In this document: piece by piece, positions 899 to 35,449 of the stretch
Layout: each line of letters opens with the position of its first letter
Position numbering within the stretch: position 1 is the first letter of the stretch
Assembly: GCF_004403945.1 (NCBI RefSeq)
Contig: NZ_SOHM01000009.1
Span: forward strand, 1-58,255
Length of the DNA stretch: 58,255 bases
From: Cryobacterium lactosi
GTDB lineage: Bacteria > Actinomycetota > Actinomycetes > Actinomycetales > Microbacteriaceae
Direction: 5' to 3'
Notes under the pieces: model-generated
Told to the model about the DNA's origin: nothing
Databases searched by the model: none
What the model saw: only the letters and a program-made list of their open reading frames with translations
Position numbers and translations under genes: made by a program

Positions 899-942
899 GG
901 CTCATATCCCATGGGAAACGAGGCACTTGGGTTTCGAGACAC
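899..942. repeat. 26-bp recombination-site-like palindrome, copy 1 (core 899-924)
   Basis: The core is a 12-2-12 imperfect palindrome with AT at the centre, related to the half-site GTCTCGTATCCC and its reverse complement. Five bases after the core is an extra half-site, GGTTTCGAGACAC (930-942), in direct orientation with the right arm. Confidence 0.75.
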
Positions 943-1204
943 CTCACTTCGAGAGTTACGGTGTCGAGGGGCTTGCGACCGACGCACGTTCAGGTGAATC
1001 CTGAGCCACTGACACTCGACGTGTTGCGAAGCACATCACCGACGAAGGCGGCCAGAAATGATTCTCTTGAGCCCCACCGATCCATCTGTCCCGATCGCCT
1101 GGGACGCGGGTTCGACGCCCGGCACGGACATCTCAATACGTGTCGGAGCGGACGTTGGGCCGTCTGCTTTCATCATTCGCACTATGGAGCGCACCGGTCA
1201 GAGG

Positions 1205-1543
1205 ATGAACGACGCTGGGCAGGTCACAGGGGTCGTCGATGACGCACGAACTATGGCGGAGCTGGCGGTTAGGGAAGCCCTTCTTGTCATGCTCGACCAG
1301 ACCTACCCGCGAGACTCGCTGGCCACCCGAATGGAAGAGATTGCCGAGGAGGCCAGTGTCGTGGATTGGTCGGAGTGGGAGTTCACTCAGATCGTTGTCG
1401 ATGGAGTCGGCTTCGCTCTTCGAGTTCGGCACCAGCAGCCGCCAGGTTTCGTAGCCATCGCCGACTTGGGTGACGCCGTGGTCACCATGCGCGGGAAGGA
1501 ACTGCCGGCTGACCGCCGGTTCACTCTTCATCGCCGCCTGTAG
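1205..1543 (+). CDS. Hypothetical acidic protein
   Basis: The product is about 112 residues, acidic and without membrane segments or a signal peptide. I recognise no family. The open frame runs from 1058, but the first 49 residues look non-coding. ATG 1205 follows CAGAGG closely, and ATG 1184 is an alternative. A helical N-terminal half (residues 10-50) is followed by a strand-rich C-terminal half (FTQIVVDGVGFALRV, GFVAIADLG), the pattern of a small single-domain protein such as an immunity protein, which is inference only. The stop codon ends two bases before palindrome copy 2, as expected for a gene captured in a site-bounded cassette. Confidence 0.55.
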   Translation: MNDAGQVTGVVDDARTMAELAVREALLVMLDQTYPRDSLATRMEEIAEEASVVDWSEWEFTQIVVDGVGFALRVRHQQPPGFVAIADLGDAVVTMRGKELPADRRFTLHRRL

Positions 1544-1544
1544 A

Positions 1545-1570
1545 GTCTCACAACCAATGAGATACGAGAC
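1545..1570. repeat. 26-bp recombination-site-like palindrome, copy 2
   Basis: The core has 12-2-12 structure with AT at the centre. The right arm GAGATACGAGAC is close to consensus and the left arm GTCTCACAACCA is less so. No clear outer half-site is present. It begins two bases after the stop codon of the gene ending at 1543. Confidence 0.7.
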
Positions 1571-1642
1571 ACAACCGCCGACGGGGCGCAACCGATTTGC
1601 TCCGGCGGCGTCTCCCCGACTCAACCGACGACTGGGGAGGCG

Positions 1643-1996
1643 TTACTGATCGTTCTTCTTCTTCAGAAGGATGAGCGGAGCTGTCGCCACAAAGCCGAGA
1701 CCAACACCCGCCAAGGCCGTCAGGCCCCAACCAGGCGGCTGCAAAACCGTCGCCCCCGACGCCGTTTCCCACAAACACTTACGACCTAGGGGAACGACTG
1801 ACCAATCTGCGGAGATCAGCGCGTTCTCCGCGATTGAAGCGCTCGGCGGCCTCGACGAGTTCCCGACAATGCAGTTGTACTCAAGAGTGTTGTAGCTGGC
1901 CCGATAAAGCTGGATACAGACCACCGCAAGCAACCCGAATCCAACGAGCGCAACGAGAGCGGCACGTCGAACGGGGATTCTTCTCCTTAGGGGCAA
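1643..1996 (-). CDS. Small two-helix membrane protein of unknown function
   Basis: The product is about 117 residues. An Arg-rich N-terminus precedes a transmembrane helix (AALVALVGFGLLAVVCI, about 12-28). An external loop with Cys in EYNCIVGN and RKCLWE follows, then a second helix (TALAGVGLGFVATAPLIL, about 93-110) and a KKKND tail. The two loop Cys could pair. The start is uncertain. TTG 1996 has no ribosome-binding site, whereas AAGGAG at 1983-1988 lies four bases before an in-frame ATC at 1978. It sits between palindrome copies 2 and 3. Confidence 0.6.
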   Translation of the reverse strand: MPLRRRIPVRRAALVALVGFGLLAVVCIQLYRASYNTLEYNCIVGNSSRPPSASIAENALISADWSVVPLGRKCLWETASGATVLQPPGWGLTALAGVGLGFVATAPLILLKKKNDQ

Positions 1997-2044
1997 TGGC
2001 TCTTCCTAGCGCTCAGACACAACAGGATCTTCATCGCCATTATC

Positions 2045-2149
2045 CATGGGGGTCCAACACTCATGGGAGCGTTCGCGGAGTTCGAGAGATCTCTGATCCA
2101 TGAACGTCAGCGCGAAGGACCTCAAAATATGCGAGCGCGAGACGCCGGT
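2045..2149 (+). pseudogene. Serine resolvase/invertase fragment
   Basis: The translation contains LMGAFAEFERSLIHERQREG, the conserved helix E region that ends the catalytic domain of Tn3-type resolvases and DNA invertases. Neither the N-terminal catalytic serine region nor the C-terminal helix-turn-helix is present in any frame nearby, so this is a short relic. It lies between palindrome copies 2 and 3, whose 12-2-12 design matches crossover sites of this recombinase family. That makes a relative of it the natural candidate for building the array. Confidence 0.7.
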
Positions 2150-2206
2150 TACGTCCCCGTGAGTGGTGTGACCTCCGGCGGTCACTCGACTTCATCATCC
2201 AGCGCA

Positions 2207-2250
2207 GTGTCTCGCATCCGAAGTGACTCGATACCCATGGGATACGAGAC
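2207..2250. repeat. 26-bp recombination-site-like palindrome, copy 3 (core 2225-2250)
   Basis: The core is 12-2-12 with AT at the centre and a perfect right arm GGGATACGAGAC. An outer left half-site GTGTCTCGCATCC (2207-2219) lies exactly five bases from the core. The next gene's stop codon starts three bases beyond the core. Confidence 0.8.
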
Positions 2251-2253
2251 GTA

Positions 2254-2547
2254 CTAGCTGTAGTCCGACCCCAGCAAGGACCCGCCGTTCAGTACGCGTT
2301 TGACGACGTCCATCGGCAGAGAAATCTGGACCGCAATTTCGTCGGTAGTCATTCCGTTGTCTGCGCAGTCTCGGAGGGCTGTCTCCACCTGCTTCGCGGC
2401 TGCGTCCAGAGCGATCAATTGCGGCTGCATCTCGATGAGCGCCGCCCGAGCGTTGTCCAGCCGTGGATCTCTCATGGGCTGACGAATGGGACCGCTCAGA
2501 TCGATGAGCCAGTCCGGGCCCTTTGATGATTCGTCTATTCCGCTCAT
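2254..2547 (-). CDS. Small hypothetical protein with a possible C-terminal HTH
   Basis: The product is 97 residues and starts MSGIDESSKG. The open frame extends to 2667, but that part overlaps palindrome copy 4 and looks non-coding. The central part is helical (ARAALIEMQPQLIALDAAAK). The C-terminal TTDEIAVQISLPMDVVKRVL has the spacing of a helix-turn-helix, suggesting a small DNA-binding or antitoxin-like protein. This is inference and I do not recognise a named family. It fills the interval between copies 3 and 4, with its 3' end touching copy 3. Confidence 0.55.
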   Translation of the reverse strand: MSGIDESSKGPDWLIDLSGPIRQPMRDPRLDNARAALIEMQPQLIALDAAAKQVETALRDCADNGMTTDEIAVQISLPMDVVKRVLNGGSLLGSDYS

Positions 2548-2621
2548 GGCGTCGATCGCACCCAGGGATGTGGGCTTGAATTGGGCGCTCGTAGGAGCCA
2601 GCTGCAACGCGCGACCGCAGG

Positions 2622-2683
2622 CTGTCTCAAAACCCACCCGCCTCATATTGCATGGGTTCTGAGACATGCCGGTTACGGGACAC
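2622..2683. repeat. Complete 62-bp recombination-site-like element, copy 4 (core 2640-2665)
   Basis: This copy shows the full architecture. The order is left outer half-site CTGTCTCAAAACC (2622-2634), 5-bp spacer, 26-bp core with central AT, 5-bp spacer, right outer half-site GGTTACGGGACAC (2671-2683). The element is symmetric as 13-5-26-5-13. Confidence 0.8.
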
Positions 2684-2715
2684 CCCGTCTGACTTCGGCC
2701 ATCGACTCACAAGGC

Positions 2716-3471
2716 CTATTTTGAGGCGAGGCGTTGAGCAACAAGTAGCTCGAGTGCATGCTGGTCGTCTCGAAGGTACGAGAAATCGGGGTCGTGGTAC
2801 GTCTGGACTTTCAGCTGTTTGAGATAGGCAATGATGCCGGGCAGGTATCGTTCATCGCCATCGCGAAGGCGCCTCGCGGTGTCGGGATGTGCTTCGAAAA
2901 CCAGGTCGATAAGAGCCGCTGCCCGGTCGGGCGCTGGCACATCGCTGAGAGTCGGAATGATTGTCCCGGCCAAGGCGCCGTATACCCATAATTGGGCCCA
3001 GGGGGACTCGTTCTTGAGCACGACTGCTGACGAGGCCGGCTGTGGCCAGAACTGGATCAGGTAAAGCTCGGACGGTAGCGCCTGTGGGTCGTCACGGAAC
3101 TGTTGTGACCCAGTTTCGCCGTCGATAACGACGAAGCGCACACGGTACGCAATGCCGGGTGTCATTGGGATGGAGAATCCGGTTGCGCCCGGATCCCATG
3201 GGTCGATCGAGGCCGAGGCCCCTGCTGTGATGGAGAACTCCACGACGTTGCTCCAAGTGGGATCGAAAGCTGGCATGCTCGCAAAGGCTTGCGCCTCGAC
3301 GGAAACTGTCCCGACCTGCCGAAGAGTGGTCAACAACACCTGACCGATATCGTTCTCTCTCACTAGGCCCAACGGCGACCCCCAGGGGATGAAGACCTTG
3401 CCGTCCTCTCCCACGCACAAATAGATCTGTGAGAATTCGGCGGCGACCTCACCTCGAACGCTGCTATCCAT
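2716..3471 (-). CDS. Hypothetical soluble protein
   Basis: The product is about 251 residues and starts MDSSVRGEVAAEF after a GGGGGAA ribosome-binding site. An upstream ATG at 3495 lacks one. There is no signal peptide or membrane helix. The N-terminal two thirds is strand-rich (EFSQIYLCVGEDGKVFIPWG, AYRVRFVVIDGETG). The last 90 residues are helical (PDRAAALIDLVFEAHPDTAR, DDQHALELLVAQRLA). I cannot assign a family or activity. It is the single gene between copies 4 and 5 and is oriented with its 3' end towards copy 4, like the neighbouring leftward genes. Confidence 0.65.
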   Translation of the reverse strand: MDSSVRGEVAAEFSQIYLCVGEDGKVFIPWGSPLGLVRENDIGQVLLTTLRQVGTVSVEAQAFASMPAFDPTWSNVVEFSITAGASASIDPWDPGATGFSIPMTPGIAYRVRFVVIDGETGSQQFRDDPQALPSELYLIQFWPQPASSAVVLKNESPWAQLWVYGALAGTIIPTLSDVPAPDRAAALIDLVFEAHPDTARRLRDGDERYLPGIIAYLKQLKVQTYHDPDFSYLRDDQHALELLVAQRLASK

Positions 3472-3608
3472 CGTTCCCCCGTCGAATAACCACATGATGG
3501 GCCTGCTAGGCCAAGCAACACGCTACCGACTCAGCCGGGCAGGTTCCACCATAAGACGCGAAATCCATCCGGTGACGGGGCATTAAGCACGCGCTCGAGC
3601 ATCCAGTT

Positions 3609-3652
3609 GTCTTGATACCCATGGGATATGAGACACGCCGGTTACGAGACAT
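3609..3652. repeat. 26-bp recombination-site-like palindrome, copy 5 (core 3609-3634)
   Basis: The core is 12-2-12 with AT at the centre. A 5-bp spacer precedes the outer half-site GGTTACGAGACAT (3640-3652). There is no left outer half-site in the mirrored position. Confidence 0.8.
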
Positions 3653-3743
3653 CTCCGGCCGGAGCCACGTGCTGGCATAAAGGAGATCACTGAGCATGCA
3701 CCGAGCGCTCGTTCTCTCAGTAGTTTCTACTGCTCAGAACCCG

Positions 3744-4397
3744 TCACAGCTGTTGAGTCTGTCGGCTCCGCAACTCAGCCAGCAGTCGAACCAATTCCAC
3801 GATCCGGTCGCGGCTCGAAAAGTTGAAGATTCCCCATCCCGATTGGTTTGGCACGATCGGAAGCTTGAGGTCGCCATCTGGTGTGCTTACCTGTATGTCG
3901 ATTCTCGGAATCGACCGGACGCCCAATGCGAACTCTCCTTTCTTTACTGACGCCACGTTCTGCCACGGAATGTGCACGAGCAGCTTCACTGGTCGATGTC
4001 CCGAATAGACATCTAAGCCGCGATCGTTAGCGACAACCGCGAGAATAGATGCCTTTTCCGATCTAGGCGCACCGAACTGCAGCAGCGCTTCCCAAAGGCC
4101 TGTTCCATGCCTCTTGTCGACGCTTAGCACGAGACTGTTGGGTTCTACTTCCGAGAGCTCGCGCAGTCTTCTATTGAGGCGCGCGCCGTAGAGGATCATC
4201 CACAAAGAGATTAGGAGAGCTAGTCCCGCGATAACTGCAACGGAATATACAAACGCAATGGCGTTCTGCGACTCACTTAGCTTGTCGGCACGATCGACAA
4301 CGGTAAAGATTCGACCAGCTATGAAGATTGAAAATAGTACGACGAAGACGAAGAACGAGTTTCTTAGTCCTTTACCTGGGGACGATGGCTTACTGAT
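3744..4397 (-). CDS. Two-helix membrane protein with a cytoplasmic beta domain, unusual start
   Basis: The protein begins SKPSSPGKGLRN, followed by a membrane helix (SFFVFVVLFSIFIAGRIF), a short loop and a second helix (IAFVYSVAVIAGLALLISL). A roughly 150-residue soluble domain rich in strands follows (NSLVLSVDKR, DIQVSTPDGDLKLPI), reminiscent of PH-like membrane-anchored domains. I do not recognise the family. The frame is open to 4508, but the only good ribosome-binding site (AAAGGAG, about 4403-4409) lies five bases before an in-frame ATC at 4397, with no ATG/GTG/TTG there. The start may be a rare ATC or a mutated ATG. It fills the interval between copies 5 and 6. Confidence 0.6.
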   Translation of the reverse strand: MSKPSSPGKGLRNSFFVFVVLFSIFIAGRIFTVVDRADKLSESQNAIAFVYSVAVIAGLALLISLWMILYGARLNRRLRELSEVEPNSLVLSVDKRHGTGLWEALLQFGAPRSEKASILAVVANDRGLDVYSGHRPVKLLVHIPWQNVASVKKGEFALGVRSIPRIDIQVSTPDGDLKLPIVPNQSGWGIFNFSSRDRIVELVRLLAELRSRQTQQL

Positions 4398-4576
4398 GGT
4401 GACTCCTTTTCTTACAAGACCTGAAGATGGAGGACCAGTGCGGCTCAGCAAACTCGAACTTAGGGAGCCCACCAGGACACCATAGCCTTCGCACTGCTCG
4501 CCGCCCAAGCGGTCGCCCCCGACGCCCCTATCCGCGTCTCACGAGCCGCCTTTGGTGGCTCGAGAAACGATACCCA

Positions 4577-4621
4577 GTCTCGTATCGCATGGGATTCAAG
4601 ACACGTTAGGTTTCGAGACAC
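4577..4621. repeat. 26-bp recombination-site-like palindrome, copy 6 (core 4577-4602)
   Basis: The left arm GTCTCGTATCGC is near-perfect, the centre is AT and the right arm is diverged. The outer half-site GGTTTCGAGACAC (4609-4621) follows after six bases instead of the usual five. Confidence 0.75.
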
Positions 4622-5188
4622 TCTCGATCGGAGTCACGAGCTGGTGGTGAACCGGTCCAAACATTGGCCTTCGGGCGTAAGGCTCGAATGGGCGTCGGGC
4701 TGGGTCTAGGCGTCCTGGACTATCAGCCGAACGCACGAACCTGGTCCCCGTGATCCTCGACCGGGAAGACGGGGTAGAGCTCACTGTGCCGAAACCGAGG
4801 GGTTTTGCGGCACGCAGTTTGCGAGTACCTCCCGAACTGATGCCGAAGTGACTGAACGTTGGCTCCCATGGTGGGCCCTCCATCAGGTGCGCGTCCGCCG
4901 GGGACTTCGTCTTCCTGCTAGTGGCGCCACCAGAAGACCAAGTCCAAGGCGGCTTGCACGCTATTGCCCAAGAGGTCATAGAACTGAACTATGCGCGCTC
5001 GCATGCTGGACACAATTCCCCTGATCACGGAGTTGCGACGGATATGGGCCATCATCGGAGCCTAACTGACGCGAAATCGAAACGAGTCGAAACCCTGGCA
5101 TCGCTGGCCGGCGACGGACGTTGCCGTTCTTGGTGGCGATCACTTGTCGCACGACCTTCGTGAGACCGGAGTCCACGGGGCCCTGCGT
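4622..5188. other. Interval between copies 6 and 7 without a convincing gene
   Basis: About 570 bp separate copies 6 and 7. A plus-strand stretch (about 4741-4850) reads LVPVILDREDGVELTVPK and ends in a stop, with stops upstream and no start. It may be the remains of a decayed cassette gene. Nothing else reads as protein for long in any frame. Confidence 0.4.
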
Positions 5189-5232
5189 GTCGCACAACGC
5201 ATGGGTTATGAGGCAGTGAGGTAGCGAGACAC
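5189..5232. repeat. 26-bp recombination-site-like palindrome, copy 7 (core 5189-5214)
   Basis: This is a diverged 12-2-12 core with AT at the centre, a 5-bp spacer, and the outer half-site GGTAGCGAGACAC (5220-5232). Confidence 0.7.
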
Positions 5233-5281
5233 AACGCTCGGTGTCGAGGATTGGCTGCTCTGGGTGTCGATTGGGGCGGCG

Positions 5282-6784
5282 TTAGCCTTCGTAGAGCGTA
5301 ATGAGGGAACGATTCGTTGTGTGAGTGGTGGCTTCGACGAATCCCATGGGTTGAAGCGCAGCTCCTGCTTCTCGGGCTGCGTCGGAATCCAGCGATCCTG
5401 CGGTGACAACCCAGATGCGATGTACGCCAACCAGCTGTGGCCCTATTTCGGCGAGTGATCGTGTTCGGTCGGAGAACGTGCCCGTTGCTGTAAAGGGTGC
5501 CTCGAACGCGATGTCTGCGGTGGCGGTGAAGGCGTCCGGGTAGGCGTAGAGCGCTTGGCGCGGCCTGAGCGTGATGCTGCCGGTGTCTTGCAGATAAATT
5601 CCGTCTCCGGTGGCGGCGTTGGAGCGGATGTAGTCGGCGATCTGGGAGAGGTCGCTACCTCCGTTTTTTGCGAATGGGCCGCGCTGGGCGATGTAGGTGG
5701 GGACGCTGGCCAGAGCGAGAGCGGCGACCAGGATCCAGGCCACGATTGATCGCGCCGGCATGGTGCAAGCAATCGCCAGAAGAATAGCGATTGCCGGGAC
5801 GGTGAAGGAGAGATACCGGGCGGTGTACAGCGGGCCGATGAGGGCATCGGCGGTGAGCAGAAGCACCGGCGGCACGATGAACCACACCCCGGCAAGCCGA
5901 AAGAGGCCACGCTGTGGACCTGGCGCTTTCTTTTGAGCCCGATAGGCCAGTAGCAGCAGTGCGCACCACGCTGTTGCCGCAACGAGCCAGGAACTGTCGA
6001 ACGCTGGCTCTACCAGGATGGTCCACGCGTTGACGACGGGTTGGTCAGCTAGCCACGCGATCTGGTCCTTTTGGGTGACGCTCATGAGCAGGATGGGAAG
6101 CGCGGTCGCGGCGGCAGCGGAAGCGGCGATGAGCCAGGGTACGAGAATGCTCCGCACGCGTTGATGCAGCAGCAAGTAGACGAGGTGGGCGGCGAAGATG
6201 AGCACGGAATACAAAAAGAGGTAGGTTCCGGCGGCGCCGAGCGCCGAGTACGCTGCCCACCATCGCCAGCTCTTGGTGCGCGCAGCGACCAGGAGGATGA
6301 CGGTGATCCACACTGCAACCGCGGCGCTCAGTGCGAATGAGCGAGCTTCACTGCCCATGGATGTTGTCCGCGGCAGGACCGCAAAGATCAGGCCTGCCAC
6401 GACAGCCATTCTTACGCTCGTGGCCGACGCGACCAGGACTACCAGCCCAGCAGCGGCCGCCGCTACGGCGATCGCAGATAGCGACCGCGTGGCCAACTCG
6501 GACTCACCGAACGCTCCAACCCAGAGTTTCACGAGGGAGTAGTAAGCGGCGTGCACCGCGTCTTTGTGCTCGACAAATGCGAAAAGCTCGTGCCAACTCA
6601 GTCGGGAGGCCCGAAGCGTCGCGACTTCATCACTCCAATACGAGGGAATCCAAGAAGCAGCGAGGGAGATGATGAGGGCCACAATGCCCACGATGACCGC
6701 AGCCGGGTTTCTTCGACTTGGATAACTGATGCGTGAGCGGCCGGTGCGATTCAATCTGGGGATAGAGACTGGGGTTGCGTGCAT
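5282..6784 (-). CDS. GT39/GT-C-type membrane glycosyltransferase (mannosyltransferase-like)
   Basis: The product is a 500-residue integral membrane protein of the polyprenyl-phosphate-sugar-dependent GT-C class. After a basic N-terminus, the first helix (AAVIVGIVALIISLAASW) leads directly into the loop motif SYWSDEVATLRASR. The acidic pair DE there is the expected catalytic/metal site of this class. About ten further hydrophobic helices follow up to residue 360. The last 130 residues form an external soluble domain with GDGIYLQDTGS. It probably transfers sugar from a lipid carrier to an extracytoplasmic acceptor. The start ATG follows GGGGG. It is divergent from the sigma factor gene. Confidence 0.85.
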   Translation of the reverse strand: MHATPVSIPRLNRTGRSRISYPSRRNPAAVIVGIVALIISLAASWIPSYWSDEVATLRASRLSWHELFAFVEHKDAVHAAYYSLVKLWVGAFGESELATRSLSAIAVAAAAAGLVVLVASATSVRMAVVAGLIFAVLPRTTSMGSEARSFALSAAVAVWITVILLVAARTKSWRWWAAYSALGAAGTYLFLYSVLIFAAHLVYLLLHQRVRSILVPWLIAASAAAATALPILLMSVTQKDQIAWLADQPVVNAWTILVEPAFDSSWLVAATAWCALLLLAYRAQKKAPGPQRGLFRLAGVWFIVPPVLLLTADALIGPLYTARYLSFTVPAIAILLAIACTMPARSIVAWILVAALALASVPTYIAQRGPFAKNGGSDLSQIADYIRSNAATGDGIYLQDTGSITLRPRQALYAYPDAFTATADIAFEAPFTATGTFSDRTRSLAEIGPQLVGVHRIWVVTAGSLDSDAAREAGAALQPMGFVEATTHTTNRSLITLYEG

Positions 6785-7002
6785 GGTGGGCCCCCAGATC
6801 GATTTCTGAGCCTATTCCCGCCGAACTACCCAGAAGGGGTGGGTCGCCGTTCCGCCCAGTTCTGGGGGTATCCAGTCCTCGAGTCATGCGTGCCCCGCTT
6901 GCGGGGGAGATTCGAGCGCGCTGCAATTTTGGAGACGAATCGAACGTTCCTGACATTCTTTGGAAAGACCACAAATTTTCGGGGGGACAGCGTGAGAAAA
7001 AG

Positions 7003-7587
7003 ATGCAAACAGCGGTCGTGACGGACATCTCGTCGGGGCCTGTGACAGACGAGAAGCTTCTACAGCAGAGCGTTGACGGTGACCGGCGAGCCTTCGGCAC
7101 CCTCCACGACCGGCATAGCCGAGTCGTCTACGCCGTCGCCATTACGGCCACGCGAAACCCGGCCGACGCTGAGGAAGTCTCCTCAGACACGTTCTTCACG
7201 CTGTGGAAGAAGCGGGCGACGGTGCGATTCACCGACGGATCAGCCTTGCCGTGGTTGATCGCGACCGCCCGATACCAAGCGATGAATCACCAACGAGCAC
7301 GTTTCCGTGAGGCGACGATCTCGCTCAACGACGACGTGGATACCCATTCCTCGGCAAGCGCCGAAACGATCGCCGCCGAACGCCAGCTCACCGAACGGCT
7401 CGAAGAAATCATCGCCGATCTAGGCCCGCTCGAGCAGAGCATTGTGCACCTGTGCCTGGTCGACCGCCTTACGTACGAACAGGCCGCGATCAAACTCGGC
7501 ATCACTCACGCCACGGTGCGAAACCGGCTCGCCCGATCACGCACACAACTGCGCCACGAACTGCACCTGGAGGAAGGAACCTCATGA
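7003..7587 (+). CDS. ECF-type RNA polymerase sigma factor
   Basis: The product is about 194 residues. Region 2 spans roughly 20-85 (LLQQSVDGDRRAFGTLHDRH through the DAEEVSSDTFFTLWKK motif typical of sigma2). Region 4 spans roughly 135-185, with the helix-turn-helix LTYEQAAIKLGITHATVRN. The frame is open further upstream, but ATG 7003 after GAGAAAAAG fits the family length. The stop TGA overlaps the start of the next gene (ATGA), so the two are translationally coupled. The downstream partner is a CU044_5270-like membrane protein, a common partner of actinobacterial ECF factors. It is therefore likely a membrane-signal-controlled regulator (inference). Confidence 0.9.
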   Translation: MQTAVVTDISSGPVTDEKLLQQSVDGDRRAFGTLHDRHSRVVYAVAITATRNPADAEEVSSDTFFTLWKKRATVRFTDGSALPWLIATARYQAMNHQRARFREATISLNDDVDTHSSASAETIAAERQLTERLEEIIADLGPLEQSIVHLCLVDRLTYEQAAIKLGITHATVRNRLARSRTQLRHELHLEEGTS

Positions 7588-8618
7588 ACAAGTCAACTGA
7601 CCTGCACAGCGACCTCCTGCCGAACGACGAGGCTTTCACCCGAATGAAGCAGGATCTGTTCGAACGAATCGACGCCGACGAGCTCGCTCCATCAATCAAC
7701 CTGGTTACTCCGGTCACACGCAACGCTGCCAAGAAGACGACGCGGCGACGATGGGCAGGCGCCATGGCCGTGGCAGCAGCAGCGATCACCGTTGCCCTGC
7801 TGGGAGCCAACCTCTTCAGCCCGAACGTCGCACCCGCGACGGCTGCGGAAGTGCTCCGTTCAGCCGCAGCCGCGACCATAGTCACAGCCGACCCCGTGGT
7901 CGGCCCAGGCCAATACCTCATGACCCAACGCACCGAGGGTGCCCTGGGTAGAGGCAACAATTCCGGTTATATCGACAACCGTCGTAGCGCAATGTATATC
8001 CCTTACGACCGGTCCGGCACCTGGATTGAAGAGATCCAATGGCTCCCCGCTGGCGAGATCTTCGGTGATGCCGCGGAGGCACAAGCGGAGATCGACGATT
8101 TCTGGAGTACGCCGGGACGCGGTGACGCGAAGTTCTATGAGGGTCCAGCCGGTATCTTCGCCGGATCTGACCGGTCGTACCCGGAGATGGCATCCATGCC
8201 CACTGATCCCACCGAACTACTGGATTTCGTCTACAACAACCTCACCGGAGGAAACCCGCGAGACGAACAAGCCTTCGTTGACATCTGTGACCACCTATCG
8301 ACGGGTGTCGTGCCGGCCGAACTGCGCGCAGCAATGTATGAGGCCCTTGCCCGGATACCCGGAGTGTATGTCGCGGAGGGTGAAGTGACCGTCGACGGCC
8401 GTACCGGCGTAGCCATCGGCCGCAAGACCAACTCTGACTCGGAGTCCCACCAGCTCATCATCGACCCAGCCACAGGGCTGATTATCGGGACCAGAAGCGT
8501 TCAACTCATTGATCGCCAATTCGTACCGGCCGGCACGAGTGGAAACGTGACTTTGGAAACCACGGTTGTTGATCAAGCTCCCACCGGTCCGTTCACCGTG
8601 CGGTCCCCGCAGGGCTAG
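7584..8618 (+). CDS. CU044_5270-family-like membrane-anchored protein, ECF partner
   Basis: The product is 344 residues. The cytoplasmic N-terminus of about 50 residues (NDEAFTRMKQDLFERI) precedes a KKTTRRRW stop-transfer and a single membrane helix (AGAMAVAAAAITVALLGANL). A roughly 260-residue extracytoplasmic domain follows. Features such as ATAAEVLRSAAAAT after the helix, a GQYLMTQR strand and a C-terminal TVVDQAP match CU044_5270 proteins, which accompany ECF sigma factors. It probably senses an envelope signal and controls the sigma factor (inference). The start ATG overlaps the sigma stop and sits behind GAGGAAGG. Confidence 0.8.
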   Translation: MNKSTDLHSDLLPNDEAFTRMKQDLFERIDADELAPSINLVTPVTRNAAKKTTRRRWAGAMAVAAAAITVALLGANLFSPNVAPATAAEVLRSAAAATIVTADPVVGPGQYLMTQRTEGALGRGNNSGYIDNRRSAMYIPYDRSGTWIEEIQWLPAGEIFGDAAEAQAEIDDFWSTPGRGDAKFYEGPAGIFAGSDRSYPEMASMPTDPTELLDFVYNNLTGGNPRDEQAFVDICDHLSTGVVPAELRAAMYEALARIPGVYVAEGEVTVDGRTGVAIGRKTNSDSESHQLIIDPATGLIIGTRSVQLIDRQFVPAGTSGNVTLETTVVDQAPTGPFTVRSPQG

Positions 8619-8718
8619 AAAGACGCGGATGAGCACGGACCAAGAGCCGGCATCGGCGCCGTCCGCGACGTATTGGATAGACGTTACCTACGCGGTGCGA
8701 GAGATGCTCGATCGATAG

Positions 8719-8778
8719 AGACCTACATATCCGCCGGCTCGAGGACATTAGTCCTCGAGCCGGCGGATATGTAGGTCT
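8719..8778. terminator. Perfect 28-bp inverted repeat with ATTA loop
   Basis: The arms at 8719-8746 and 8751-8778 are exact reverse complements, with a 4-base ATTA loop. This gives an exceptionally strong hairpin about 100 bases after the sigma/partner operon. No T-run follows on either strand, so it is not a textbook intrinsic terminator. A bidirectional terminator or a processing site are alternatives. Confidence 0.65.
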
Positions 8779-8835
8779 GTCGCCCCTACTTGGCACCGTC
8801 GAGCACGATCTATCCGGTGGAGCTGTTCGAACTCT

Positions 8836-8861
8836 GTCTCGAAGCCCTACAGATGCGAGAC
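8836..8861. repeat. 26-bp recombination-site-like palindrome, copy 8 (TA centre)
   Basis: The arms GTCTCGAAGCCC and CAGATGCGAGAC flank a central TA rather than AT. No outer half-sites are evident. Confidence 0.65.
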
Positions 8862-8915
8862 AGGGCCAGATGCGCGAAAAGTCGCCTCTCGTCGCTTGAA
8901 CAAGCGATCTCCTGC

Positions 8916-8959
8916 GTCTCGTATCGCATGGGATATGAGGCGCCCGCGTTACGAGACAC
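8916..8959. repeat. 26-bp recombination-site-like palindrome, copy 9 (core 8916-8941)
   Basis: The left arm GTCTCGTATCGC is near-perfect and the centre is AT. The outer half-site CGTTACGAGACAC (8947-8959) follows a 5-bp spacer. It lies only 54 bases after copy 8, so the two form a close pair without a gene between. Confidence 0.8.
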
Positions 8960-9027
8960 TGCGGTCCGTGGCCAGATACACTCGGGGGCGCTCCGAGAGC
9001 AGGCAGCGAATATCAAAGGTGGATGCA

Positions 9028-9447
9028 ATGATCGATCCCGTCCCGATGCGCCTCCGCGAAAGGGTTCCGGGCCCCTCCCTGATCCGGACGGCGTACCTCA
9101 CCGTCCTTTCCGCGGCGCTGACCGTAGCGTCGACAATCGCGGTGATGGTCGCGATTTTGGTGACCCAATCCACGTTTGACAACCCCGTCGTGGCAACGCT
9201 AGCCGCGATCCTGGCAGCATGTCTTGTTGGTGGAGTCGCGTGCACGCACTTCGTGAAACGGGCTTTGAAAGCGGAGACCGCGGCGGGTTACACGACCAGT
9301 CGTTTTGGGTACCCCCAGCTAGAGCTGGTTGACCCGTCCACCAACCTCATTGTTCGGGCCGCAGGCGAGCCCCTAATCAGCCGAGAGGAATACCGGCGCC
9401 GCGTGCAGGCGTATCGCACCATGGTGCTGGAATCTGATGATGCTTAG
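9028..9447 (+). CDS. Small two-helix membrane protein of unknown function
   Basis: The product is 139 residues. ATG 9028 follows AAAGGTGG at good spacing, and longer upstream reading overlaps palindrome copy 9. Two helices (LTVLSAALTVASTIAVMVAI, about 25-45; VATLAAILAACLVGGVACT, about 55-73) are followed by a soluble tail of about 65 residues ending REEYRRRVQAYRTMVLESDDA. I do not recognise the family. It is the only gene between copies 9 and 10 and runs rightwards, the 3' end being 111 bases from copy 10. Confidence 0.65.
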   Translation: MIDPVPMRLRERVPGPSLIRTAYLTVLSAALTVASTIAVMVAILVTQSTFDNPVVATLAAILAACLVGGVACTHFVKRALKAETAAGYTTSRFGYPQLELVDPSTNLIVRAAGEPLISREEYRRRVQAYRTMVLESDDA

Positions 9448-9558
9448 AGCGCTGAGGTGCGGAGCGGACGACTTGCCATAGCCGTTGGACACGTTCAGCG
9501 CATTGGACATGAGCCGGGCGCGTTGGATCGCCGTCCGCTGAGGCCGGCATGCTCAACT

Positions 9559-9584
9559 GTCTCGAAACCCTACGGATACAAGAC
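9559..9584. repeat. 26-bp recombination-site-like palindrome, copy 10 (TA centre)
   Basis: The arms GTCTCGAAACCC and CGGATACAAGAC flank central TA, the same centre as copy 8. No outer half-sites are clear. Confidence 0.65.
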
Positions 9585-9751
9585 GTCGCATCGCCCTGAC
9601 CTGGATTTCCTCTGAAAATGCCTGAATCTCGCGGCAGGCCGGGTCTCATAACTACGTCGCAAAACCTTTGACCGGAATTTCAGTGCTCACGGTTAGTTGT
9701 GCGACATCTTTCAGACGGGTGGATGTGGGTAGCGGCTGCTTAGCTGTCGAC

Positions 9752-34677: not shown

Positions 34678-35253
34678 CTAGCGGGCGGCGTTACTGGTCG
34701 AGTCGTTATCACGGGACCGATCCGGCATCAATCCCAGCGAGCCTGCCCGACGGTAGAACGTAGCTCGGGACTTTTTTGAAGTCGGGCGCGCCTTGCGCCG
34801 TCGGATCTCCAGCTTCGATGACTCGGTAGGTGCTGGGGATCTGAATGTTCGCAGTGATGTGCGGCCGACCGCCAAGGCTTTTTAGAGTCTTGTGGTGTTT
34901 GTCGATCGAGTCGAGAACCCGCTCTCGCTTGATTTCGTGTTCCATTGGCCGAGGGCCGCCATGACTGTGAACAGCATCGAGTCCAGAGGAGTCACTATGT
35001 CGACGTCTCCCCCGCCCAGATTGACAACCCGAAGGGCCTCACCCCTGCCCTGAGGATTTCGGCGAACGCGAGCACGTTCTGCGTCGACCCATCCAGCCGG
35101 TCCAGGGTTGTGATCACGAATGTGTCGCCAGGCTAGAGCCTTTGAGCGCGAGATCAAGCTGAGGCCGGGCTGCTCGAGCTCCGGCACTCCACCGATCGAC
35201 ATACAAGTAAGCTGCTGCCGATTCGATACCCGCGCGTACCCAATGAGCTTCAT
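34678..35253 (-). pseudogene. Serine resolvase/invertase gene, multiply frameshifted
   Basis: Across three frames the whole Tn3-type resolvase can be followed: MKLIGYARVSNRQQ (catalytic Ser), LYVDRWSAGARAARPQLDLA, DTFVITTLDR, LGGGDVD...DSMLFTVMAALGQ, MEHEIKRERVLDSI, and the C-terminal helix-turn-helix end SRATFYRRAGSLGLMPDRS. At least four frame changes inactivate it. It belongs to the recombinase family whose crossover sites match the 26-bp palindromes at 0.9-9.6 kb, and may be a dead copy of the enzyme that acted on them (inference). Confidence 0.85.
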
Positions 35254-35449
35254 CACCGCACTCCTCCGCTGACCCATAACTAGCGATGCATACTGCCATC
35301 TCACGAAAAAGTCACGCGACGTAGTCACAAGACCCATCAGGCGCTGCGAGAGCGCGGAATCTGTGACTTTTCATACTCCTCTTGCACAATATTTCACACC
35401 CGCCTGCACTACTCGTCTGGACTGACAGATACCAGCGGGAATTAGCGTC

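What the first reader, a model, noticed from the sequence alone, without database searches (positions are those of the whole stretch)
899..9584. Array of single genes separated by ten 26-bp palindromes with serine-recombinase site geometry
Seen: ten copies (899, 1545, 2225, 2640, 3609, 4577, 5189, 8836, 8916, 9559) of a 26-bp imperfect palindrome, each exactly 12-2-12, half-site consensus GTCTCGTATCCC. Single small orphan genes lie between many of them. Known: crossover sites of DNA invertases (hix, gix) and resolvase site I are 26-28 bp inverted 12-mers around a 2-bp overlap. Inference: a serine recombinase has been capturing or shuffling genes between these sites, an integron-like cassette system not based on a tyrosine integrase. 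This is my best candidate for an undescribed system.
Basis: partly seen in the sequence, partly recalled or inferred. Interest (0 to 1): 0.9.

Follow-up and report, generated by a model that had tools for sequence, protein, structure and literature searches.

The report
Serine-recombinase gene-cassette arrays (integron-like)
Bacteria of the genus Cryobacterium carry rows of single genes separated by short palindromic sites beside a serine-recombinase gene, and whole genes are shared between species with their ends at those sites, so the rows are likely a gene-collecting system that would work like an integron but with an unrelated enzyme.

Summary
All ten 26-bp 12-2-12 palindromes are there. 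Seven of the eight AT-centred ones carry a third half-site; 8836 and 9559 are TA-centred. Matches cluster on six contigs. In 5 genomes a 216-aa resolvase/invertase-type serine recombinase ends a homologous array near tRNA-Arg(CCG) in a syntenic locus, with a res site of the same half-sites 114-115 bp before it; the longest array spans about 57 kb. The ten genomes with this recombinase (>=79% identity) are the ten of 57 with >=7 site matches (cut-offs set afterwards). Cassettes are shared between species in different order: 27 of 114 homology ends fall within 20 bp of a core in both copies (shifted-site null: mean 0.17, maximum 4), and at AT cores similarity drops to background at the central 2 bp. 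Window cassette 898-1572 is 94.5% identical in Cryobacterium sp. 1639, both ends at cores. No integron integrase passes its cut-off in 60 genomes. The window's array is an orphan: res kept, recombinase lost. Recombination itself was not assayed.

The parts
899..940 (+). AT-centred core 899-924 plus outer half-site 929-940
   Evidence: left border of cassette 898-1572 shared with Cryobacterium sp. 1639
1058..1543 (+). cassette gene, 161 aa, no Pfam/NCBIfam hit; 22 related proteins listed from 5.8 billion, best 94% in Cryobacterium sp. 1639
1545..1570 (+). AT-centred core, no outer half; window 1428-1572 is 93% identical to G004 905798-905942, where the core has the same left half but centre GT
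1643..1996 (-). possible cassette ORF (117 aa), coding uncertain
   Evidence: no convincing family
2063..2143 (+). fragment of a serine-recombinase catalytic domain (PF00239 positions 117-143)
   Evidence: E 0.0012, 19.4 bits, below the curated cut-off 23.3
2209..2250 (-). AT-centred core 2225-2250 with outer half on the left (2209-2220); inverted relative to its neighbours
2254..2547 (-). cassette gene, 97 aa; second copy at own-genome C36:196810-197103 (90% DNA over 2233-2561), left border in the core in both copies
2624..2681 (.). AT-centred core 2640-2665 with outer halves on both sides (2624-2635, 2670-2681)
2716..3495 (-). cassette gene, 259 aa, near-orphan (6 proteins listed, itself included); 91.4% DNA match in another genus starting at the core edge 2665
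3609..3650 (+). AT-centred core 3609-3634 plus outer half 3639-3650
3744..4508 (-). cassette gene, 254 aa, no family above cut-off; 3617-4533 is 91.7% identical in C. zongtaii (G079:C32), one end in core
4577..4619 (+). AT-centred core 4577-4602 plus outer half 4608-4619
5189..5230 (+). AT-centred core 5189-5214 plus weak outer half 5219-5230
5282..6784 (-). mannosyltransferase-like membrane protein, 500 aa (below curated cut-offs)
6982..7587 (+). ECF sigma factor
7587..8618 (+). CU044_5270 family protein (above cut-off); 6911-8898 is 91.4% identical in a C. zongtaii array
8836..8957 (+). composite site: TA-centred core 8836-8861, AT-centred core 8916-8941, outer half 8946-8957; repeated at about 70-81% identity in other arrays
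9028..9447 (+). cassette gene, 139 aa, no family; 8836-9462 is 90.3% identical in C. adonitolivorans
9559..9706 (+). orphan res (attI-like): TA-centred site I 9559-9584, direct half-sites 9643-9654 and 9656-9667, inverted half 9694-9705; the recombinase gene that follows it elsewhere is missing
   Evidence: 93% match in G031

Best explanation
The ten palindromes are the junction sites of a gene-cassette array that a resolvase/invertase-type serine recombinase, found at the end of homologous arrays in this and other Cryobacterium genomes, likely builds and reshuffles by cutting the central 2 bp, as integron integrases do with different chemistry. SHOWN: array architecture (res site, then recombinase gene reading away from the array); shared half-sites between res and cassette sites; conserved recombinase end and variable array side at one syntenic locus in five genomes; cassettes shared between species in different order with ends at cores; drop of similarity at the centre of AT cores. 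INFERRED: the recombinase performs the exchanges; exchange requires matching centres (AT with AT, TA with TA); new cassettes enter at the TA core of the res and are exchanged further inside the array at AT cores; third half-sites and the 84-bp spacing position accessory recombinase dimers, as in res sites. The window's own array is a recombinase-less derivative that could be served in trans by the C29 recombinase.
For: Own genome: site matches on C22 (window), C29, C36, C41, C43 and C44 only (150 of 478 first-look candidates were scored), one further odd-centred core on C19 by PWM; 2 of 13 PF00239 loci have a TA core just upstream. The recombinase lies at the end of the C29, G007, G023, G024 and G004 arrays and of short site groups in G006 and G014. 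Its tRNA-Arg(CCG) side is syntenic in 5 genomes: blocks of 82-93% DNA identity over 1.7-5.7 kb link G000 with G004, G007, G023 and G024 and the last three of these with each other except G007, whose other pairs give 70-75%. Ten genomes with >=79% recombinase are the same ten with >=7 site matches; 0 of the other 47 (1/C(57,10)=2.3e-11; both cut-offs were chosen after seeing the numbers, and G031 with 7 is close to the next, 6). 27 of 114 homology ends lie within 20 bp of a core in both copies, null mean 0.17, maximum 4. AT left-shared pairs (38): left half 0.91 vs baseline 0.77, right half 0.73 vs 0.72; right-shared pairs (16): left half 0.75 vs 0.77, right half 0.95 vs 0.72. One segment ends at the TA core of a full res in G023 (981555) and at a TA core with composite-type right side in G002 (144172), 88% identical up to the core; one ends at a TA core with 42 bp of res-type sequence (G007 767871) and at a full composite (G007 811135), 99.5% identical. 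Outer halves point the same way as the recombinase in 56 of 74 AT cores of the ten arrays that end in res and recombinase (3 opposite, 3 both, 12 none). TA-to-AT type spacing 83-85 bp in 24 of 37 pairs. Recombinase under purifying selection: median dN/dS 0.177, maximum 0.40, 45 pairs.
Against: No excised circle or reaction was observed. 87 of 114 homology ends do not meet the criterion. Over all 16 regions with a recombinase hit the orientation count is weaker: 56 same, 13 opposite, 4 both, 14 none of 87; the ten-array count leaves out regions without a res beside the gene. The res has a TA centre while most cassette sites are AT, so entry of AT-only cassettes at the res is unexplained. For TA cores the break is less sharp (8 left-shared pairs: both halves near baseline). 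All ten array-type recombinases have Q, K or M where 87 of 89 distinct relatives have Arg, a residue proposed to contact the scissile phosphate in Tn3 resolvase (R71; passages of PMC4499144), and one (C. adonitolivorans) also has Cys where the others have Arg54, so activity could be reduced. Cassette ORFs show no strand bias (55 of 100 read away from the recombinase, crude caller), unlike what I recall for integrons. In G031 the recombinase has no core detected just upstream, its three nearby AT cores lie 3.5-11 kb away, and the larger site cluster is about 470 kb off. The window array has no recombinase.
Confidence: 0.84

Rival explanations
1. The sites are relics: a plasmid or transposon resolvase and its res were inserted once, copies spread, and cassettes now move only by homologous recombination or insertion sequences; the present recombinase is inactive.
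For: Related recombinases (60-80% identical in 27 of 28 records) lie on plasmids of Arthrobacter, Clavibacter, Kocuria and others. The array clade lost a conserved active-site Arg. Near-identical 1.4-kb blocks away from sites occur inside the G007 array. Two recombinase copies near arrays carry in-frame stops (G023 near its C-terminus, G070:C24).
Against: Breaks fall at the central 2 bp of AT cores with unrelated flanks, which homologous recombination between 26-bp imperfect sites would hardly give. Recombinase dN/dS is 0.177. Recombinase and large arrays coincide 10 of 10.
Confidence: 0.1
2. A site-specific inversion (shufflon) system that flips segments for phase variation.
For: Half-site geometry is like hix/gix (recalled), and the closest solved structures are DNA invertases (E 4.5e-29). 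13 of 87 AT cores point the other way in the wider count.
Against: In arrays that end in res and recombinase sites point the same way (56 same, 3 opposite of 74). Segments are exchanged between species at cores. No fixed flipped gene was seen.
Confidence: 0.03
3. Dispersed repeats (MITE-like) or operator sites of a regulator.
For: Palindromic; only 4 of 100 called ORFs overlap a core, so mostly intergenic.
Against: Clustered in a few places. Homology ends at cores. The res before the recombinase is built of the same half-sites.
Confidence: 0.02
4. A true integron with an unrecognised tyrosine integrase.
For: Array architecture.
Against: TIGR02249: 0 of 60 genomes above cut-off. The recombinase at the array end is PF00239.
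Confidence: 0.01

Closest known systems
Sedentary chromosomal integron (IntI/attI/attC)
   Same: Recombinase gene at one end, a primary site beside it, then a tandem array of small cassettes with repeated sites; orphan arrays without recombinase (cf. CALIN; passages of PMC8618304)
   Different: Serine instead of tyrosine recombinase; double-strand palindromic 12-2-12 cores with extra half-sites instead of attC; two core types; no strand bias of genes in a crude count
Tn3/gamma-delta-type resolvase and res, including Sin
   Same: PF00239 fold; site I plus accessory half-sites just upstream of the gene, two of them in direct repeat, as in Sin site II (passages of PMC9943657)
   Different: Many partner sites in an array; substitution of the Arg71-equivalent; cassette turnover rather than cointegrate resolution
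Hin/Gin DNA invertases
   Same: Best PDB matches are DNA invertases; 26-bp 12-2-12 cores (hix/gix recalled)
   Different: Sites mostly in direct orientation; exchange of genes between species
pdif modules (XerC/XerD) of Acinetobacter
   Same: Genes flanked by small recombination sites thought to move as modules (search listing and abstract start of PMC7399989)
   Different: Tyrosine recombinases, no recombinase next to the array, other site geometry (recalled)
Staphylococcal cassette chromosome (Ccr)
   Same: Serine recombinase moving cassettes (recalled)
   Different: Large Ccr proteins; CcrB model scores 23.6 against cut-off 900

Membership tests
Integron | intI tyrosine recombinase | tested here: not met
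   TIGR02249 above cut-off in 0 of 60 genomes
Integron | attC sites folding as single strands | not tested
   cassette sites are palindromes matching the res; no folding test made
Integron | tandem cassettes exchanged at sites next to a recombinase and primary site (functional analogue) | tested here: met
   by comparison of genomes only
Small serine recombinases (PF00239) | Resolvase domain and catalytic Ser | tested here: met
   107.7 bits against cut-off 23.3; Ser18 in 107 of 110 loci, 2 not covered, 1 Thr
Small serine recombinases (PF00239) | Arg equivalent to Tn3 resolvase R71 | tested here: not met
   Q/K/M in all 10 of the array clade; R in 87 of 89 distinct relatives, 1 Q, 1 stop
Resolvase/res system | site I plus accessory half-sites upstream of the gene | tested here: met
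   site I upstream in 60 of 74 related loci with enough sequence, of 80
Tn3-family transposon | tnpA transposase with the resolvase | not tested
   no dedicated search made
Shufflon / invertase system | inversely oriented sites | tested here: not met
   56 same, 3 opposite, 3 both, 12 none of 74; 56/13/4/14 of 87 in the wider count
SCC (Ccr) | CcrA/CcrB large serine recombinase | tested here: not met
   216 aa; NF047343 (CcrB) 23.6 against 900

The most novel reading that the evidence does not exclude
A second, independently evolved integron: a chromosomal gene-capture machine run by a serine recombinase, with a res-derived attI, dual-core cassette sites (TA for entry at attI, AT for exchange inside the array, 84 bp = eight helical turns apart) and a recombinase clade that gave up a catalytic arginine when it changed from resolvase to cassette recombinase.
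Probability: 0.5. Interest if true: 0.96.

Novelty: categorically new. Interest (0 to 1): 0.92.

Why it matters
Cassette capture and stockpiling in chromosomal arrays is described for integrons, with tyrosine recombinases and attC sites (PMC8618304 passages). An unrelated enzyme class doing the same would show convergent evolution of gene-cassette arrays, give actinobacteria a way to collect orphan genes, provide a new set of orthogonal recombination sites, and make testable how a resolvase turns into a cassette recombinase.

Tried and rejected
Dispersed repeats, operators, shufflon and true integron: see rivals. Synteny of the window's right flank with G031's orphan-res array: not found; the flank matches scattered places, so the place of the window array in the genus is not defined. 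Joining C36's end (210063, inside an array) to C22's start: plausible, not shown. Strand bias of cassette genes as in integrons: I assumed it in notes, but the count is 55 of 100, so it is rejected. Link between loss of the Arg and arrays: true for all ten of the clade, but a 4-AT-site array of Cryobacterium sp. 1639 (L081) lies beside an Arg-bearing copy that carries a stop, so the link is not exclusive. Arrays in other genera: 9 of 297 order genomes (own and one other of the genus included) have matches; the seven outside the genus have at most 4, counting both strands (only 26 candidates per genome were scored, so weak arrays could be missed); 14 of 71 less similar recombinase loci (three of them Cryobacterium) have 1-4 same-oriented AT sites within 10 kb upstream. 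Paper searches listed no paper that I recognised as describing such a system; I saw listings and abstract starts, and passages of four papers. Preprints and most subscription papers are not held.
Full report
CHECK OF THE OBSERVATION. All ten 26-bp cores are present at the stated positions, with 12-2-12 geometry. The PWM null (100 Markov sequences) never reached their scores; the PWM is built from the same ten, so the stronger proof is that sites of the same kind cluster elsewhere. A 26-position sequence model (24 rows: ten window cores and two from recombinase loci, both strands) gave 59 matches at E<=1 in the 4.66-Mb genome, all on C22 (the window), C29, C36, C41, C43 and C44 (150 of 478 first-look candidates scored). 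The PWM on fetched stretches added one odd-centred core on C19. The third half-site outside most AT cores and the TA/AT distinction were not in the finding.

THE RECOMBINASE. Of 13 PF00239 loci in the genome, two have a TA-centred core just upstream: C29:71626-72276 (intact, 216 aa) and C43 (truncated). Their upstream regions align as a res: TA core, 84 bp later two direct half-sites, then an inverted half-site close before the gene. Window 9559-9706 is the same res without the gene. tblastn places orthologues at the end of the arrays of G007, G023, G024 and G004, and of short site groups in G006 and G014 (61-88%), reading away from the sites. Of the 16 regions with a long recombinase hit the res core is 114-115 bp from the start in 10, at 125-173 bp in 3, and not found in 3. 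In G000, G007, G023, G024 and G004 a tRNA-Arg(CCG) follows on the recombinase side (4.3 kb further on in G007) with syntenic DNA, and parts of the far flank are conserved too, while the array between differs.

CO-OCCURRENCE. In 57 genus genomes the recombinase at >=79% identity is in 10 (G000, G004, G007, G023, G024, G031, G060, G070, G073, G079), and the same 10 have >=7 site matches; the other 47 have at most 6 (matches count both strands of palindromes, so the number of sites is about half; 135 candidates per genome scored; cut-offs set after seeing the numbers). 36 of 57 have at least one match at E<=0.003, and 29 of 57 have some recombinase at E<=1e-50. G031 is the weakest of the ten: 7 matches, no core just upstream of its recombinase. 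The genus name comes from named loci whose contig lengths equal those of G006, G014, G060, G070, G073 and G079; it is inferred for the window's own genome.

EXCHANGE AT THE SITES. Among 27 regions with 191 cores, 57 alignments of >=250 bp lie wholly in arrays; 27 of their 114 ends are within 20 bp of a core centre in both copies, against 0.17 on average (maximum 4) in 1000 circular shifts of the sites. Four have both ends at cores by this criterion: C36 208975-209861 with G007 806354-807239 (94.9%), G007 782466-783322 with G004 904058-904896 (88.3%), G007 783940-784597 with strain N22 (96.0%), G024 1489242-1489784 with strain 1639 (96.2%). An earlier count on 13 regions gave 14 of 58 ends within 30 bp. 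For the window itself: 898-1572 is in Cryobacterium sp. 1639 (94.5%, both ends at core edges), 3617-4533 and 6911-8898 on two different contigs of C. zongtaii (91.7%, 91.4%), 8836-9462 in C. adonitolivorans (90.3%), 2233-2561 on own C36 (90.3%). Gene order is thus not conserved. Four of those five matches have at least one end in or at a core (for 8836-9462 the TA core); the far ends of 3617-4533, 8836-9462 and 2233-2561 stop 56-109 bp short of a core centre, and 6911-8898 starts inside the interval and ends 30 bp before the AT centre.

WHERE THE BREAK LIES. One search used 204 sites (127 AT, 77 TA; other centres and scores under 20 left out, 3 dropped at record ends). Pairs were chosen by flanks alone. 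In AT pairs sharing only the left flank (38 pairs, 43 sites) the left half is more alike than in unrelated sites (0.91 vs 0.77) while the right half is not (0.73 vs 0.72). In pairs sharing only the right flank (16 pairs, 26 sites) it is the reverse (0.75 vs 0.77; 0.95 vs 0.72). The switch is therefore at the central dinucleotide. For TA: 37 right-shared pairs give 0.85 vs 0.80 and 0.91 vs 0.76; 8 left-shared pairs give 0.81 vs 0.80 and 0.82 vs 0.76, which does not resolve it. Pairs are not independent.

SITE ANATOMY. 104 AT sites with one outer half give GTCTCgtAtCCC-AT-GGGtTanGAGgC-4 bp-nGGTTnCGAGAC. 37 pairs of an AT core and a core of another centre lie 47-112 bp apart; 24 at 83-85 bp, partner centre TA in 32 of 37. 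Because the res also has its accessory half-sites at +84, TA core plus element at +84 is a shared plan. My inference: TA cores mediate joining to the res, AT cores exchange within the array. Two pairs bear on TA exchange between res and composite: G023 981555 (full res) with G002 144172 (TA core with 43 bp of composite-type sequence, no AT core at +84 found), and, within G007, 767871 (42 bp of res-type sequence only) with 811135 (full composite).

THE ENZYME. Closest solved structures are DNA invertases (E 4.5e-29) and gamma-delta/Tn3 resolvase. The residue aligned to the Arg after LDRLG in gamma-delta is Q, K or M in all 10 clade members; in 100 other loci it is R in 98, Q in 1, a stop in 1, which after removal of repeated records is R in 87 of 89. 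PMC4499144 (passages) describes R71 as proposed to contact the scissile phosphate; that residue 80 is its equivalent rests on the alignment. dN/dS is low (0.177; Arg-bearing relatives 0.080, 15 pairs), so the protein is maintained, though less strictly. How it works without this Arg is open.

CARGO. 100 ORFs called crudely in ten arrays: 55 read away from the recombinase, 4 overlap a core. Of these, 96 were scanned: 67 Pfam families at E<=1e-4 (25 shown), none in more than 4 members; hydrolases, GNAT, ECF sigma, transposases; one strong match to oligonucleotide-cyclase models of anti-phage systems. Two window genes have 6 (itself included) and 22 proteins listed from 5.8 billion.

LIMITS. No reaction was observed; most homology ends do not coincide with sites; the window array is an orphan; large arrays were seen in one genus only, with capped searches elsewhere.

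Noticed in passing
L015:9627-10274 (C29 recombinase, residue 80): All ten array-clade recombinases have Q/K/M in place of a near-universal active-site Arg, while 87 of 89 distinct relatives keep Arg.
   Followed up: partly
8719-8778: Perfect 28-bp inverted repeat with a 4-bp loop just after the CU044_5270 gene, not followed by a T run.
   Followed up: no
2063-2118: Serine-recombinase fragment whose DNA recurs at 84-98% in several other genus genomes.
   Followed up: no
34778-35257: A second serine-recombinase-like stretch (40% identity to the C29 enzyme) in the window, on the minus strand, far from the array.
   Followed up: no
   Followed up: partly
L076-L155: In relatives across Micrococcales the res site I centre varies: TA 37, TT 17, AT 3, TC 1, AC 1, GA 1 of 60 found, suggesting centre switching in evolution.
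   Followed up: partly
L062-L065 (G007 array): Three near-identical (99.6-99.9%) 1.4-kb blocks inside the array, probably an insertion sequence.
   Followed up: no
1-108: 100% identical to G031 C1:890669-890562, possibly the end of a repeated element at the contig start.
   Followed up: no
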